Shown here in pieces: positions 35,500 through 43,054 of a stretch of 43,387 nucleotides of DNA. The stretch spans positions 1 to 43,387 of the forward strand of contig DAIDJG010000367.1 in the NCBI GenBank assembly GCA_027451445.1, given 5' to 3'. This stretch comes from Singulisphaera sp. GTDB taxonomy: Bacteria; Planctomycetota; Planctomycetia; Isosphaerales; Isosphaeraceae. The notes beneath the pieces are model-generated. The model saw only the letters and a list, made by a program, of their open reading frames with translations, had not been told where the DNA came from and ran no database searches. Positions within the stretch are counted from its first letter, which is position 1. Every line of letters starts with the position of its first letter. The position numbers and the translations under genes were made by a program.

Positions 35500-35748
35500 G
35501 GGGCTGAAGCGGAAATCCTGAAAAAAACATCCTTGACCATTAAGAGGCTGTCACCATAACATTCTCCCTAACATCGCTCTCGAGGGGCGATGTCACTTGG
35601 CTACGGCGGCCCCCTGTGCGAATCATCGTCACGGCGGGGTTTTTTATGCGCGCTCCACTCTCAACTCCCCTTGGACGTCAGTGGAGCGGCCGGATACACC
35701 CCGAATTCCCGAGGCGTTGGCCGCTAACCCACACCCAAGCTCCAGGTC
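35500..35748. other. intergenic DNA upstream of the TetR gene
   Basis: No gene is supported. An ACATCGC/GCGATGT hairpin lies near 35572-35595, and TAAGAGGCTGTC at 35540-35551 differs at one base from the right end of the REP-pair element that follows, possibly marking a remnant of a related element. Confidence 0.4.
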
Positions 35749-35926
35749 TTAGAGTCTGTCTCGGAAGTGGAGCGGAGTTGGAAAAGGGGGACCGGCTCCG
35801 AGTCTTCGAGGTGCCTGTCCCCCTTTTCTGACGGAGCGGGCGTGGAAATGGGGACGGGCACCGTCCGAAGACGGCCGGAGCCAGTCCCCATTTCCACGCT
35901 CCCGGGACTTGTGGGACAGACTCTTA
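35749..35926. repeat. REP-pair (BIME-like) element: two inverted hairpins with matching ends
   Basis: The ends carry AGAGTCTGTC (35751-35760) and its exact reverse complement (35915-35924). Inside are two hairpins: GAAAAGGGGGAC/GTCCCCCTTTTC (35781-35792 with 35817-35828) and a 15-bp stem CGTGGAAATGGGGAC with its complement (35841-35855 with 35884-35898). The loop of the second is an inverted relative of the first (GGCTCCG, CTTCG and GTGCC motifs shared), so the whole unit is a large imperfect palindrome. This is how REP pairs moved by RAYT transposases look. No transposase is present in the window. Confidence 0.7.
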
Positions 35927-36549: not shown

Positions 36550-36597
36550 CTCCTGCGACCGCCCGTCCGCGGGAGAGAAAGTCTCTCGGGGCAGGAG
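36550..36597 (+). promoter_or_regulatory. leader stem that can mask a Shine-Dalgarno sequence
   Basis: CTCCTGC (36550-36556) is the exact complement of GCAGGAG (36591-36597), which contains most of the strong AGGAGG ribosome site in front of the TTG-start ORF at 36604. A second hairpin, GAGAGA-AAG-TCTCTC (36573-36587), sits in its loop. The fold could switch translation of the first ORF of the kdp transcript. No match to the known c-di-AMP riboswitch pattern was seen. Confidence 0.4.
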
Positions 36598-36603
36598 GTC
36601 ACC

Positions 36604-36822
36604 TTGATTTTCAACACTCTCGTTTTGGGTTTCTCGGCTGTCGCTCTGTTGATGATCCTCGTGGGTTGGACAGTTGATTTTGTTTGCAAGAAAGGAGATG
36701 GGAATGGCCATCGGCACACTGACGCTCGGAGTGATTATGTTCGTCCTGTTCTTCGGCATGGTCGCGGCGTGCGACCAGCTCTGACCCCGACTGCGAAGGA
36801 ACCCGAACCGTGCTCTACCTGA
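36604..36822 (+). CDS. candidate small membrane protein (TTG start), first ORF of the kdp transcript
   Basis: TTG lies five bases after a perfect AGGAGGT, the best ribosome site in this region. Residues 2-27 (IFNTLVLGFSAVALLMILVG, then WTVDFV) form one clear hydrophobic helix followed by KKGDG. The last ~40 codons overlap the 26-aa ORF at 36704 and the start of kdpF in another frame and are Arg/His-rich, as in a shadow, so only the front half looks genuine. Possible explanations are a real overlapping gene, a frameshifted small protein, or a leader peptide. Codon third positions are less GC-rich than in kdpA. Confidence 0.4.
   Translation: MIFNTLVLGFSAVALLMILVGWTVDFVCKKGDGNGHRHTDARSDYVRPVLRHGRGVRPALTPTAKEPEPCST
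36704..36784 (+). CDS. 26-aa small membrane protein ahead of kdpF
   Basis: MAIGTLTLGVIMFVLFFGMV followed by AACDQL: one predicted transmembrane helix. ATG at 36704 is six bases after AAGGAG; a second in-frame ATG at 36698 touches the ribosome site and is less likely. It has the size and shape of small Kdp accessory peptides such as KdpF but lacks the KdpF ending, so it may be an additional small subunit or regulator of the pump. No known family was recognised. Confidence 0.5.
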   Translation: MAIGTLTLGVIMFVLFFGMVAACDQL

Positions 36823-36890
36823 CCGCGCTCCTGACCGTGGCCGCTTTGGTGTACCTGACGTATGCCATGATCCGGCCGGAACGGTTTTGA
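36810..36890 (+). CDS. kdpF: KdpF, small subunit of the K+-transporting ATPase
   Basis: A 26-residue protein with a GTG start: LYLTALLTVAALVYLTYAMI then RPERF. One transmembrane helix followed by the typical KdpF ending (LxYAxxxPERF). In KdpFABC it stabilises the complex in the inner membrane. A ribosome site (AAGGA) lies nine bases upstream. Its place directly ahead of kdpA supports the call. Confidence 0.85.
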   Translation: MLYLTALLTVAALVYLTYAMIRPERF

Positions 36891-36995: not shown

Positions 36996-38750
36996 GTGGC
37001 ACTCGCCCCCACATCGTTTCTACACCCGCTCTGGGCCTTTGGCGTACCCATCGCCGCGTCCTTCCCGCTGGGATGGATGATGGCCCGTTCACTCGATCCC
37101 AAGGAGGCCAAGGCCGGCAAGGGACTCGATGCCCTGCCGATGTTCCTCTGCCGCCTCATCGGCCGCAAAACACCGGTCAAGATGAGTTGGAAGGACTATT
37201 GCATCGCCCTGCTGGCGTTCAACGCGGCGTTGTTCGTCATCACGTTCACGCTGTTTTACGTCCAGCAACACCTGCCCTTGAACCCCGATACCAAAGGATC
37301 ACTCGGGGCGCTCGGGTACAAGGATAGTGCAGGAGTCCAGCACGACGGCGTGGATACCGGCGTGGTCTTCAACACCGTCTGTTCGTTCGTCACCAACACG
37401 AACCTGCAACACTACTCGGGCGAACAGCACCTTTCGTACTTCAGCCAGTTGGCCTGCATCCTCTGGCTCATGTTCGTCACCCCGGCATGCGGCCTCTGCG
37501 CCATGCTCGCGGTGCTCCGCGGCTTGCGGGGGGATTCGCATATGGGTGACTTCTACGTCGACCTGATGCGTACCGTCCTGTTCGTCTTTCTGCCCTTCTG
37601 TTTCGTGATCGCCACCCTGCTGATCGCCTCGGGGGTCCCAATGACCTTCGACGCCGCAGCCAAGGCGACACCGCTCGACGGGGTCGCCGCGAAGATGGAA
37701 GCACAGACGATCTGCCGCGGACCCGTCGCCGCAATCATCGCGATCAAGCAGTCTGGCACCAACGGCGGCGGCTTCTTCGGCCCGAACTCGGCCCACCCAT
37801 TCGAGAACCCGACGCCCTGGACCAACCTGCTTTCCGTCGCCTCGATCGTCGCTCTGCCGATGGCCTCGATGGTGATGGCGGGGAAAATGCTGCGGAACGC
37901 CCGACATGCCGCGGTGCTCTACGGTGTGATGCTCACGTTGCTGATCACCGGTACCTCGATCGCCATCTGGGCGGAAACTGCCCCCAGTGCGGCTACGCAC
38001 GGTCTACCCGTTGTCGCGGAACCGAACATGGAGGGCAAGGAGACGCGCGTGGGCCCAGTGGCGTCAGCCACTTGGGCAGGGATGACATCCGGCACCTCCA
38101 ACGGCTCGGTCAACAGCATGCATGACAGCCTTAACCCGCTGGCCGGCATGATCCCGATGTCGCACATGATGCTCAACGTCGTCTTCAGCGGCATCGGCGC
38201 GGGGTTCGAGAACCTGTTTATCTACGTGATTGTGGCCGTATTCCTGGCGGGCCTGATGGTTGGGCGCACGCCCGAGTACCTTGGCAAGAAGGTCGAGGCG
38301 CGCGAGGTGAAGCTGGCCATGCTGGTCATGCTGATTCACCCCGTCTTGATCCTGGCAGGCGCGGCGCTCTTCGCGGCCCAGCCGTTCGGTGCCAAGACGG
38401 TGGCCAACCCCGGTTCGCATGGGTTCAGCGAGATTCTCTACGAGTTCACCTCGGCCGCGGCCAACAACGGCTCTGGCTTCGAGGGTCTGGGCGACAACAC
38501 GCCTGCTTGGAATGTCGCCACGGGTATCGTCCTTCTGCTGGGCCGGTTCCCCGCGTTGGTGCTGCCAATCGCGCTCGCCGGCTTCCTTGCCGCGAAGAAA
38601 CGCGTGCCCGAAACCACCGGCACGTTGCGGACCGATAACCTGACTTTTGCTGGCATGCTGATCGGTACCGTTCTCCTCGTCGGCGCGCTGTCGTTCATGC
38701 CGGCCGTCGTGCTCGGTCCGGTGGCAGACCACCTCGTTGCACTTAAGTAG
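36996..38750 (+). CDS. kdpA: KdpA, K+-binding channel subunit of the Kdp ATPase
   Basis: The K+-selective channel-like subunit of the KdpFABC pump in the inner membrane, 584 residues (E. coli about 557) with about ten membrane helices. The four filter regions are all present: FNTVCSFVTNTN (about 125), GTNGGGFFGPNSAHPFENP (about 254), NSMHDSLNPLAGM (about 373) and SAAANNGSGFEG (about 485). GRTPEYLGKKVEAREVKL and the ending GTVLLVGALSFMPAVVLGPV are also classical. GTG start, preceded by GAGGA at about eight bases; the first residues run into membrane helix 1. The N-terminus and the loops after helix 1 are slightly longer than in E. coli. Confidence 0.95.
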   Translation: MALAPTSFLHPLWAFGVPIAASFPLGWMMARSLDPKEAKAGKGLDALPMFLCRLIGRKTPVKMSWKDYCIALLAFNAALFVITFTLFYVQQHLPLNPDTKGSLGALGYKDSAGVQHDGVDTGVVFNTVCSFVTNTNLQHYSGEQHLSYFSQLACILWLMFVTPACGLCAMLAVLRGLRGDSHMGDFYVDLMRTVLFVFLPFCFVIATLLIASGVPMTFDAAAKATPLDGVAAKMEAQTICRGPVAAIIAIKQSGTNGGGFFGPNSAHPFENPTPWTNLLSVASIVALPMASMVMAGKMLRNARHAAVLYGVMLTLLITGTSIAIWAETAPSAATHGLPVVAEPNMEGKETRVGPVASATWAGMTSGTSNGSVNSMHDSLNPLAGMIPMSHMMLNVVFSGIGAGFENLFIYVIVAVFLAGLMVGRTPEYLGKKVEAREVKLAMLVMLIHPVLILAGAALFAAQPFGAKTVANPGSHGFSEILYEFTSAAANNGSGFEGLGDNTPAWNVATGIVLLLGRFPALVLPIALAGFLAAKKRVPETTGTLRTDNLTFAGMLIGTVLLVGALSFMPAVVLGPVADHLVALK

Positions 38751-38756
38751 GAGCCC

Positions 38757-39094
38757 ATGACTCACGTCACTTACAACCCGTTGAGCAGCGTGGCCAGGCT
38801 CACGACAACGTGCGCACGGCAATGCGTTGAAACGCGCTGCAACTCTCGAAAACGTGACGTGAGCCTTTCGCACGGTGCTCGCCGTCGTGCGGAGCGGCCC
38901 CTGGTTGAGCGCGGTCCCGGCCGCGTTTTGTACGACGGCCGTCGCGTACTGGAGAGAGCAGAGCGTGTACGGCCACTGACATCGGACAAGCAAGGCCGGG
39001 ACCGCGTCCGGCCAGGGGCTCAAACATCCCCGGTTCCGTCCTCGTTCGCGAGATGGAATCGCCAACCCGAATCCTCTCATTCAGGAAAGAATTC
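38757..39094 (+). ncRNA. structured kdpA-kdpB intergenic region, candidate RNA element
   Basis: The 344-bp gap is far longer than usual between kdpA and kdpB and holds many paired segments: CTCACGTCAC with GTGACGTGAG (38761-38770, 38854-38863); inside it GTTG and CAGCG with CGCTGCAAC (38780-38790, 38835-38843); a CGCACG/CGTGCG hairpin (38869-38891); and a long stem of CCCCTGG/CCAGGGG (38898-38904, 39012-39018) plus 13 bp CGCGGTCCCGGCC with its complement (38910-38922, 38994-39006), with a CGACGGCCGTCG palindrome (38933-38944) in its loop. It could be a structured RNA tuning the KdpA:KdpB ratio, or an inserted mobile fragment. An ORF spans it (separate entry). Confidence 0.4.

Positions 39095-39098
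<4 letters not shown>
38757..39098 (+). CDS. doubtful 113-codon ORF between kdpA and kdpB
   Basis: ATG follows an AGGAG by about four bases just after the kdpA stop, and the TGA stop overlaps the kdpB start as ATGA, a layout typical of translational coupling. Against it, the product is Arg-rich ([20 protein letters not shown]), has no hydrophobic core or known domain, and the DNA is dominated by inverted repeats. It may be a coupling ORF whose translation matters more than its product, or chance. Confidence 0.25.
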
Positions 39099-41233
<2,135 letters not shown>

Positions 41234-41278: not shown

Positions 41279-41872
41279 ATGATCCGCCAAACCGTACACG
41301 CGTTGCTCGCGTGCGTTGTCACCCTCGTGATTTGCTCCGTCGCCTATCCCTTGGCTCTATGGGGACTGGGCACCGCCCTGTTCCCACACCAGGCCGCGGG
41401 TAGCTTGATCTACGGTCCCGATAAGACCACGGTGATTGGCTCGGAGCTGATCGCCCAACCGTTCGCGTCCGACAAGTACTTCGTGTCCCGCCCTTCCGCC
41501 GTCGACTACAAGGCCGACGCCGCAGGCGGCTCGAACCTGGGCACCAAGAACCCTGACCTCCATGCCAAGGTCAAGGAACGGGCCGAGGCCCTCAAGGCCA
41601 CGCCGGAGAAGCCAGTGCCGGCCGACCTGATCGCCGCGTCCGGCTCGGGCCTCGACCCGCACATCAGCCCCGAGGCCGCCTACTTCCAGGCCGACCGCGT
41701 CGCGGCCGTGCGGCAGATGACCGTCGAGCAGGTCAAGTCGTTGATCGACACAATGACCGATAAAAGCGGGGCCGTCATCGGTGCGCCACCGCGCGTCAAC
41801 GTCCTGAAGCTGAACCTCGAGCTCGACAAAGAAACGTCGGCGAAACCCAAGGAAACGACGGCTTCCCGATAG
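41279..41872 (+). CDS. kdpC: KdpC, accessory subunit of the Kdp ATPase
   Basis: The single-span membrane subunit of KdpFABC that raises ATP affinity, 197 residues. One N-terminal helix (ALLACVVTLVICSVAYPLAL), then GSELIAQPF, the SRPSA segment and ASGSGLDPHISPEAA near residue 120, all KdpC hallmarks. The ATG follows AAAAAGGAA. The C-terminal tail (KETSAKPKETTASR) is charged and longer than usual. It lies 45 bp after kdpB. Confidence 0.93.
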   Translation: MIRQTVHALLACVVTLVICSVAYPLALWGLGTALFPHQAAGSLIYGPDKTTVIGSELIAQPFASDKYFVSRPSAVDYKADAAGGSNLGTKNPDLHAKVKERAEALKATPEKPVPADLIAASGSGLDPHISPEAAYFQADRVAAVRQMTVEQVKSLIDTMTDKSGAVIGAPPRVNVLKLNLELDKETSAKPKETTASR

Positions 41873-41920: not shown

Positions 41921-43054
41921 ATGGCGAACGAGCCGCAAGCTGCCGCGTCCGAGCAATTCCTGACCTTGATTCGCCGCCTGGAGCGCGGGCGGCTCAAGGT
42001 CTACCTCGGCTCGTCGGCCGGCGTCGGCAAGACGTATGCCATGCTTCGCGAGGGGCACCGGCTCAAGATCCAGGGGATCGAAGTCGTCATCGGCGTTGTG
42101 GAGACTCACGGCCGGATTGAAACCGCAGCGCAGATCGGCGACCTGGAAATCATTCCCGCCCGCACGATCGAGTACCGAGGCGTCGAACTGCGCGAGATGG
42201 ATCTGGACGCGATTCTGGCACGGCGGCCGAGTGTGTGTCTCGTCGATGAGCTCGCCCACACGAACGCGCCGGGGAGCCGTTTTCAGAAGCGCTATCAGGA
42301 CGTCGAGGAAATGCTCCGGGCCGGCATCAACGTGATTACGACCGTCAACGTCCAGCACATGGAGAGCCTTTACGACGAGGTCGAGCGCATCACTGGAGTG
42401 AAGGTCAAGGAGCGGCTTCCCGACTCGGTCGTCGCCGAGGCGGACCAGATCGTGAATGTCGACGTCTCGGCGGAGGATTTGATCGAACGGATGCGCGCGG
42501 GCAGCGTCTATCCGCTCGAACGCGCCGAGAAGGCGCTTGCCAACTTCTTCAAGGAGGAGAACCTCACGCGCTTGCGCGAAATCACACTGACCGAAATCGC
42601 CCATCTGATCGACCGTCGAGGGCGCCGGGCCAAGGCCGAGACGTCCGAGGAACCGCTCGGCGCCGAGCGCGTGATGGTCGGCCTGTCGAGTCGCAGCCCC
42701 AACGCGCAGGCGCTTTTGCGCAAGGCGTCGCGCCTGGCCGATCGCCTGAACGCCCCCTGGTACGCGGTTTACATTCAAACGCCGGCGGAGGACATCACCA
42801 AGATCGATGCCGCCACTCAGCGGGTGCTGGCCAAGAACCTGGAACTGGCCCAGCAGCTCGGCGGCATCCCCCTGACCTTCCGCGGCCCTGACGTGGCCAG
42901 CACGGCTGTTGCGTTCGCCGCAGAGTACGGAATCAAGGTGATCGTCATGGGCAAAAGCCGGGTCCCCTGGTTCCGCCGCTACCTCCATGAACCGATGATC
43001 GACCGGCTGATGCGACTGTCTACGGGCATCGACATTTCGATCGTTGATGTCTGA
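41921..43054 (+). CDS. kdpD: short KdpD: sensor and USP domains only, no histidine kinase
   Basis: 377 residues matching only the N-terminal cytoplasmic part of KdpD (full E. coli protein about 894). The Walker A-like GSSAGVGKT is at 30-38 and the Walker B-like CLVDELAHTNAPGSR at 106-120; QDVEEMLRAGINVITTVNVQ and HMESLYDEV follow. A universal-stress-protein-like domain (about 250-377, ERVMVGLSSRSPNAQALLRK and VIVMGKSR) ends the protein at a genuine stop. The membrane helices and the kinase core are absent, so signalling would need another protein, perhaps the gene that follows. The start ATG lies 48 bp after kdpC; the ribosome site is weak. Confidence 0.9.
   Translation: MANEPQAAASEQFLTLIRRLERGRLKVYLGSSAGVGKTYAMLREGHRLKIQGIEVVIGVVETHGRIETAAQIGDLEIIPARTIEYRGVELREMDLDAILARRPSVCLVDELAHTNAPGSRFQKRYQDVEEMLRAGINVITTVNVQHMESLYDEVERITGVKVKERLPDSVVAEADQIVNVDVSAEDLIERMRAGSVYPLERAEKALANFFKEENLTRLREITLTEIAHLIDRRGRRAKAETSEEPLGAERVMVGLSSRSPNAQALLRKASRLADRLNAPWYAVYIQTPAEDITKIDAATQRVLAKNLELAQQLGGIPLTFRGPDVASTAVAFAAEYGIKVIVMGKSRVPWFRRYLHEPMIDRLMRLSTGIDISIVDV

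What the first reader, a model, noticed from the sequence alone, without database searches (positions are those of the whole stretch)
36604..36890. Two extra small membrane ORFs in front of kdpF
A 26-residue single-helix ORF (36704) and the front of a TTG-start ORF (36604) both have good ribosome sites and hydrophobic helices, directly before kdpF. They may be unreported small subunits or regulators of the K+ pump.
Basis: partly seen in the sequence, partly recalled or inferred. Interest (0 to 1): 0.55.

Follow-up and report, generated by a model that had tools for sequence, protein, structure and literature searches.

The report
Small membrane peptide before potassium-pump genes
A 26-residue membrane peptide encoded just in front of a bacterial potassium pump belongs to a family found at the same place in several bacterial phyla, often left unannotated, and is probably an overlooked part of the pump.

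Summary
In detail: ORF 36704-36784 (26 aa, one helix) and the TTG ORF at 36604 lie directly before kdpF with good ribosome sites. The two fare differently. The 36704 ORF belongs to a widespread family, called Z here. A one-helix ORF of 22-43 aa precedes kdpF in 166 of 186 assessable kdp loci: Planctomycetia 92 of 95, Bacillota 58 of 60, plasmid records I picked 16 of 22; none in E. coli, lactobacilli, Deferribacterota, sphingomonads. Profiles trained without a lineage still find its Z (medians 12-23 bits; shuffled about 0-1, kdpF 2-3). Codons show purifying selection (276 of 276 pairs pN<pS). All 49 genome-wide profile matches at E<=1e-5 lie before kdpA. Z is no KdpF copy and has no Pfam or NCBIfam model. 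Best reading: an accessory subunit of the pump, KdpZFABC; binding is inferred, not shown. It is not wholly unreported: a paper names a kdpZYABCXDE transcript in Clostridium acetobutylicum, and two Mycetohabitans records call Z 'potassium ABC transporter ATPase'. ORF 36604 occurs in 2 of 24 family loci, both of this genus; undecided.

The parts
36604..36822 (+). ORF1, TTG start, 72 aa; only the first ~33 codons (one helix) are at issue, the rest overlaps Z and the start of kdpF out of frame
   Evidence: similar helix ORF in the congener L002 at the same place; not found in 22 other family loci
36593..36599 (+). AGGAGGT ribosome site of ORF1
   Evidence: read directly
36704..36784 (+). kdpZ-type gene (Z), 26 aa, one helix, C-terminal CDQL (family mostly CDRL)
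36692..36697 (+). AAGGAG ribosome site of Z
   Evidence: read directly
36810..36890 (+). kdpF, 26 aa, GTG start
   Evidence: Pfam PF09604 E 2.9e-9
36996..38750 (+). kdpA
   Evidence: Pfam PF03814 E 6.3e-207
39053..41233 (+). kdpB (by position and the DKTGT motif in its translation; not run against a library)
   Evidence: translation
41279..41872 (+). kdpC (by position; not run against a library)
   Evidence: translation
41921..43054 (+). short KdpD: KdpD domain plus Usp; no histidine kinase domain recognised
   Evidence: Pfam KdpD E 1.5e-92 and Usp E 1.2e-7

Best explanation
The 36704 ORF is a real gene (kdpZ type). Its product is a single-helix membrane peptide, by charge N-terminus outside and C-terminus inside, made from the kdp mRNA just before KdpF. 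It most likely joins the KdpFABC pump as an extra small subunit that stabilises or tunes it, as KdpF does. Shown: conservation, purifying selection, fixed place, link to kdpA, charge pattern. Inferred: translation in this organism, binding to the pump, effect on it. ORF 36604 is at most a genus-specific addition.
For: Present in 166 of 186 assessable loci. Leave-one-lineage-out profiles: Isosphaeraceae 24 of 24, Bacillota 48 of 48, other Planctomycetia 57 of 65, plasmids 14 of 16 distinct held-out sequences beat all 20 of their own shuffles (12 of the Z had been assigned after a hit with the planctomycete profile, so for those the test is partly circular). Profile-profile match of other-planctomycete Z with Isosphaeraceae Z (E 4.7e-10) and with Bacillota Z (4.9e-10). 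Differences per site at codon positions 1/2/3 0.311/0.204/0.545, pN 0.255 against pS 0.615, 276 of 276 pairs pN<pS. All 49 profile matches at E<=1e-5 in 397 genomes lie on the same strand before kdpA; 27 of the 30 profile rows have their own loci there (28 loci), so 21 are loci not used as rows. More K/R after the helix than before in 145 of 153 distinct Z (254 against 6 residues); kdpF shows the same bias. Stop of Z to start of kdpF: overlap in 15, 0-5 nt in 29, 6-40 nt in 98 of 148 loci, which suits coupled translation.
Against: No protein or ribosome data. E. coli has no Z and its pump works; Deferribacterota, L041, sphingomonads, lactobacilli, Enterococcus, Acinetobacter and Halobacterium records showed none either, so Z is not essential to the pump as such. 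Three planctomycete loci (L016, L152, L157) lack it. The profile of other planctomycetes does not find the window's own Z genome-wide at E<=1; with the broader profile it scores 12.4 bits, well under its family's median of 23.3. At loose cut-offs the profile is not specific: 316 of 397 genomes have some match at E<=1 although 145 have kdpA, and the first match away from kdp is G391 at 2.1e-5. At most 20 candidates a genome were scored. The Bacillota profile alone finds no Isosphaeraceae Z and the direct comparison of the two is weak (E 3e-4); they are joined through the other planctomycetes. The Bacteroides and Rhodococcus members (L179, L183) rest on place and helix only (no profile hit). 26-32 residues carry little information.
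Confidence: 0.7

Rival explanations
1. Z is a leader peptide: only its translation matters, to open or pace translation of kdpF and kdpA.
For: Short, in front of kdpF, often within a few bases of it or overlapping it.
Against: Amino acids, not just an open frame, are conserved across lineages, and the helix followed by charged residues is kept in nearly all. No unusual RNA folding around it (z -0.25 and 0.36 for two window stretches, -0.25 for L002).
Confidence: 0.12
2. Z is a regulatory peptide that acts on KdpD (or on another membrane protein), not a pump subunit.
For: KdpF of mycobacteria interacts with KdpD and MmpL7 in two-hybrid tests (PMC3618439, passages), so such small helices can touch the sensor.
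Against: Z sits with kdpF and kdpA. The window's KdpD is a short form in which Pfam recognises only the KdpD domain and Usp, no membrane part, so a membrane contact with it is less likely here.
Confidence: 0.15
3. Z is a second, diverged copy of KdpF.
For: Same size, neighbouring place and same charge bias.
Against: kdpF rows share Y, P, E and F at fixed columns that Z rows lack. Profile-profile comparison finds no alignment. kdpF scores 1.7-3.1 bits with Z profiles where Z scores 12-23 (medians).
Confidence: 0.02
4. ORF 36604 is a real second small protein, perhaps a diverged Z copy, limited to this genus.
For: Strong ribosome site; helix ORF at the same place in L002 with 61% identity over 32 residues; pN 0.333 against pS 0.697 over 30 codons; no helix ORF at that place in 22 other loci, so such ORFs are not common there by chance.
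Against: Found in 2 of 24 family loci; codon-position signal weak (11/10/17); low score with Z profiles (1.8-7.2 bits; 54, 23, 3 and 17 of 200 shuffles score as high); the ribosome site is weak in L002; shared descent alone could keep the frame.
Confidence: 0.4

Closest known systems
KdpZ (first gene of kdpZYABCXDE) of Clostridium acetobutylicum
   Same: Extra gene at the head of the kdp operon, in front of a second gene (KdpY). I recall from the 1997 paper that both are small hydrophobic peptides (orfZ, orfY), and take KdpY to be the KdpF equivalent; that paper is not held.
   Different: Here in a planctomycete, with a shorter tail (CDQL instead of the WCxKQ... tail of Bacillota).
NCBI 'potassium ABC transporter ATPase', 34 aa (WP_338861741.1, WP_212667346.1), Mycetohabitans
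   Same: Same place directly before kdpF, one helix, CDKL tail.
   Different: The name does not fit a 34-residue peptide. Of the 16 plasmid records with a Z, 2 carry this name, 2 have it inside a longer 'hypothetical protein' (Phyllobacterium 57 aa; Arthrobacter 65 aa) and 12 list no gene there; the PLSDB gene table is incomplete by its own note, and one of the 12 records (L187) is almost unannotated.
KdpF (PF09604)
   Same: Single helix, ~26 aa, in the same operon, positive residues after the helix; stabilises the E. coli pump in vitro (title of Gassel 1999, seen in a reference list).
   Different: No sequence relation found; both occur together.
CydX of cytochrome bd oxidase
   Same: Works-like comparison: a 37-aa member of a large membrane complex, hard to identify because of its size (abstract of PMC4325964 in a search listing).
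   Different: Other complex, no homology claimed or tested.

Membership tests
kdpZ (C. acetobutylicum type) | small one-helix peptide encoded directly before kdpF (kdpY) on the same strand | tested here: met
   (that the Clostridium product is small and hydrophobic is recalled)
kdpZ (C. acetobutylicum type) | sequence relation to C. acetobutylicum KdpZ itself | not testable with these tools
   paper not held; its sequence was not among the loci fetched
kdpZ (C. acetobutylicum type) | sequence relation to Bacillota peptides at that place | tested here: inconclusive
   direct profile comparison E 3e-4, prob 39.8; both match other-planctomycete Z at E about 5e-10; Bacillota profile alone finds 0 Isosphaeraceae Z
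kdpZ (C. acetobutylicum type) | transcribed with kdpFABC under K+ limitation | not testable with these tools
   no expression data here
KdpF (PF09604) | match to the Pfam or NCBIfam KdpF model, PE.F end | tested here: not met
   no family hit for 36704; no profile alignment with kdpF
ABC transporter ATPase (the database name) | nucleotide-binding domain | tested here: not met
   26-34 residues; no such match for the window's Z or the 30 rows of A2
subunit of the Kdp complex | physical presence in the purified complex | not testable with these tools
   no solved chain matches profile A2 better than E 0.18; the Kdp structures I recall are of the E. coli pump, and the E. coli locus read here (L190) has no Z
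lipoprotein (LxxC-D look of LVAACD) | positively charged N-terminus and lipobox kept in the family | tested here: not met
   N-flank almost without K/R (6 residues in 153 sequences); many members have no Cys there

The most novel reading that the evidence does not exclude
In most of the lineages sampled here the high-affinity potassium pump is a five-part machine, KdpZFABC. The textbook four-part pump of E. coli lacks a small subunit that is old, widespread and under selection, and the solved structures therefore miss it.
Probability: 0.55. Interest if true: 0.75.

Novelty: new member of a known kind. Interest (0 to 1): 0.58.

Why it matters
KdpFABC is a model pump known mainly through the E. 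coli complex. A conserved extra peptide in front of kdpF in planctomycetes, clostridia and other Bacillota, rhizobia and other proteobacteria means the studied complex may lack a part that many other versions have. It is cheap to test, would correct a misleading database name, and would add a second tiny subunit to a P-type ATPase.

Tried and rejected
Rejected: Z as a KdpF duplicate; Z as lipoprotein (charge pattern); a structured leader RNA (z -0.25, -0.25, 0.36; folds of 24 loci, no common form by eye). Rfam: 13 hits, all below the gathering score; the one over the ORFs, PhrS at 36571-36685, 15.7 bits against 37, is taken as chance. Promoter and terminator scan: one promoter-like site at 35533, over 1 kb upstream (shuffles 0.3, sd 0.6), one terminator-like site on the minus strand (shuffles 1.6). 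No structure prediction was run: the peptide is below the 30-residue limit for a single protein and a lone helix would decide nothing.

I recall the 1997 C. acetobutylicum paper (not held) and a kdpZFABCN operon of Alicyclobacillus (not found by one search). Papers seen only as passages: PMC5401905, PMC11018627, PMC9650054, PMC11364881, PMC5716572, PMC3618439, PMC6255902; term searches in PMC11796252 and PMC10117765 found none of the terms.

Limits of the survey: of the 145 of 397 genomes with a kdpA match I read loci L001-L036 and 60 more stretches; not all listed loci were fetched (for example G040, G332, G102, G363, G262, G212, G213, G044 and those shown only as C-terminal pieces). The Bacillota loci come from one kdpA peptide scan (72 loci of several phyla) and lean to near relatives; some are near-identical. 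Plasmids: 23 of 463 records, chosen by me from a spread list. In one search, 12 Z were assigned by hand after profile hits, 6 by eye, one pick (L078) was dropped and 5 loci (L019, L026, L037, L046, L092) were set aside as contig ends, cut genes or duplicates. Absence in L192, L195, L198 is by eye. The other plus-strand hits of the planctomycete profile at E<=1 are these 12 Z plus L030 (E 0.018) and L141 (E 1), taken as chance. In one search the Isosphaeraceae group of 24 includes L027 (another family) and the duplicate L037. The 14 Isosphaeraceae rows checked were picked by me because they lie at kdp loci; at E 0.01-0.05 matches away from kdp also occur.

Full report
What was claimed. Two extra small membrane ORFs stand before kdpF, at 36704 (26 aa) and 36604 (TTG start). 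Both are there, with good ribosome sites. The operon continues kdpF 36810-36890, kdpA 36996-38750, kdpB 39053-41233, kdpC 41279-41872 and a short KdpD 41921-43054; kdpF, kdpA and KdpD were checked by Pfam, kdpB and kdpC by position and translation only. The window lies in a genome of Isosphaeraceae: its congener G171 carries a kdp contig of the same length and match as the named Isosphaeraceae MAG contig of L037 (84-85% KdpA identity to the window).

Conservation of 36704. In the family, the peptide before kdpF reads MA..TLALG..LFALFFGLV.ACDRL. Other Planctomycetia have MD...L.....FF.....LV..CD.L, Bacillota have M.D..M.A.L...FGL..LLV.WC.KQI...E. Alpha- and betaproteobacterial, Deinococcus, Arthrobacter and Bacillus badius plasmid records have like peptides, e.g. 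Azospirillum MLDIIALAITAAFFAASIAYVHACDRL; of 16 plasmid records with a Z, 2 name it, 2 bury it in a longer hypothetical protein and 12 list no gene there. The final count is 166 of 186 assessable loci: Isosphaeraceae type 25 of 26 (window included), other Planctomycetia 67 of 69, Bacillota 58 of 60, plasmid records 16 of 22, Deferribacterota 0 of 3, Thermodesulfobacteriota 0 of 1, sphingomonads and a Hyphomonas-labelled contig 0 of 5. The 20 misses are L016, L039-L045, L074, L078, L107, L152, L157, L182, L186, L189, L190 (E. coli), L192, L195, L198.

Chance. The ORF rule alone is met in 154 of 167 loci, 253 of 3340 shuffles, 10 of 167 reverse strands. A profile from other planctomycetes (60 sequences) found 22 of 24 Isosphaeraceae-group, 43 of 57 Bacillota and 7 of 9 plasmid Z at E<=1 among 4892 six-frame segments, and nothing on the reverse strand; the Isosphaeraceae profile found no Bacillota Z and the Bacillota profile no Isosphaeraceae Z. 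Leaving one lineage out and training on all others gave held-out medians of 23.3 (Isosphaeraceae), 12.3 (other Planctomycetia), 20.8 (Bacillota) and 20.2 (plasmids) bits against -0.3 to 1.1 for shuffled sequences and 1.7 to 3.1 for the kdpF of the same loci. Over 397 whole genomes the profile A2 has 49 matches at E<=1e-5; all 49 end 40-524 nt before a kdpA on the same strand, so the family is tied to kdp. 27 of its 30 rows have their own loci among the 49; 21 loci were not rows. Limits: at most 20 candidates a genome were scored, 316 of 397 genomes have some match at E<=1, and the first one away from kdp is G391 at 2.1e-5. A2 missed the window's own Z at E<=1; the window's Z scores 12.4 bits with the broader profile trained without its family.

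Selection. Over 24 Isosphaeraceae sequences and 25 codons, third positions vary most (0.311/0.204/0.545), pN 0.255, pS 0.615, all 276 pairs pN<pS. Window against congener: Z pN 0.206, pS 0.504; kdpF 0.018, 0.508. Z is thus less constrained than kdpF.

Topology and place. 145 of 153 distinct Z carry more K/R after the helix than before it; 116 of 153 have D or E in the first four residues; kdpF shows the same bias (0 against 159 K/R in 146 distinct sequences). By the positive-inside rule both point C-terminus in. A two-hybrid study of mycobacterial KdpF argued for a periplasmic C-terminus (PMC3618439, passage), so the orientation should be tested. Z ends within 40 nt of kdpF or overlaps it in 142 of 148 loci.

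ORF 36604. The first 33 codons have a counterpart in L002 (61% identity over 32 residues, E 0.02 in that genome). A helix ORF at that place occurs in 2 of 24 family loci. Codon signal is weak (11/10/17; pN 0.333, pS 0.697). Z profiles give it 1.8-7.2 bits, and 3 to 54 of 200 shuffles reach that; the L002 counterpart gets 5.5-8.9 bits. Its frame runs on through Z and into kdpF, which a real gene need not do. It stays undecided; a genus-specific peptide is possible.

What Z does. A peptide of this size, encoded beside kdpF at the head of the pump genes and without free-standing copies among the strong matches, is best read as an accessory subunit. The E. coli pump shows that Z is dispensable in some lineages. 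In the window's KdpD Pfam sees only the KdpD domain and Usp. PMC11018627 (passages) reports that a short KdpD of Deinococcus geothermalis is controlled by c-di-AMP and that versions of only these two domains are thought to act solely by the serine phosphorylation of KdpB that inhibits the pump. Whether Z takes part in that control is open.

What is known. PMC5401905 (passage) names a kdpZYABCXDE transcript of C. acetobutylicum. I recall that the original authors described orfZ and orfY as small hydrophobic peptides, but that paper is not held. Mycetohabitans records call Z 'potassium ABC transporter ATPase'. None of 30 Z rows has a convincing Pfam or NCBIfam match (best E 0.044 and 0.025) and no solved chain matches the profile better than E 0.18. 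My searches found no paper that treats these peptides as one family (listed under tried and rejected). The new parts are the breadth, the tests of homology and selection, and the planctomycete members.

Noticed in passing
window 41921-43054: KdpD is only KdpD domain plus Usp by Pfam, without a recognised histidine kinase; PMC11018627 (passages) describes such short forms as serine kinases that inhibit the pump.
   Followed up: partly
G171 (same genus), contigs C369, C3, C20, C87, C490: The congener has seven kdpA match pieces on five contigs (85%, 64%, 40% and other identities), so several kdp operons; the genome is rated 10% contaminated.
   Followed up: no
L007 and L010, between Z and kdpF: An extra ORF of 87 aa with a C-terminal helix (MHRRFV...) stands between Z and kdpF in these two genomes (both genus g9).
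   Followed up: no
L022, -215 to -27 before kdpA: Besides its normal Z, a second Z-like helix (LLLGLATYAELFGALASFDRR) lies in frame with kdpF without a stop; a possible Z copy or Z-F fusion.
   Followed up: partly
G000 C565, C143, C395, C338, C602, C177, C103, C146, C326, C515: Ten weak matches (50% over residues 10-31, E 0.15-0.2) to the ORF1 helix, several in 34-35-aa frames, some near contig starts; perhaps a repeated element, not aligned with each other.
   Followed up: no
window 35776-35924: Stretch upstream of the operon that attracts microRNA matches in Rfam on both strands, all below the gathering score; probably hairpin-forming repeats, not examined.
   Followed up: no
L196:3176-3343: Phyllobacterium zundukense has an extra hypothetical 55-aa gene between kdpA and kdpB.
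   Followed up: no
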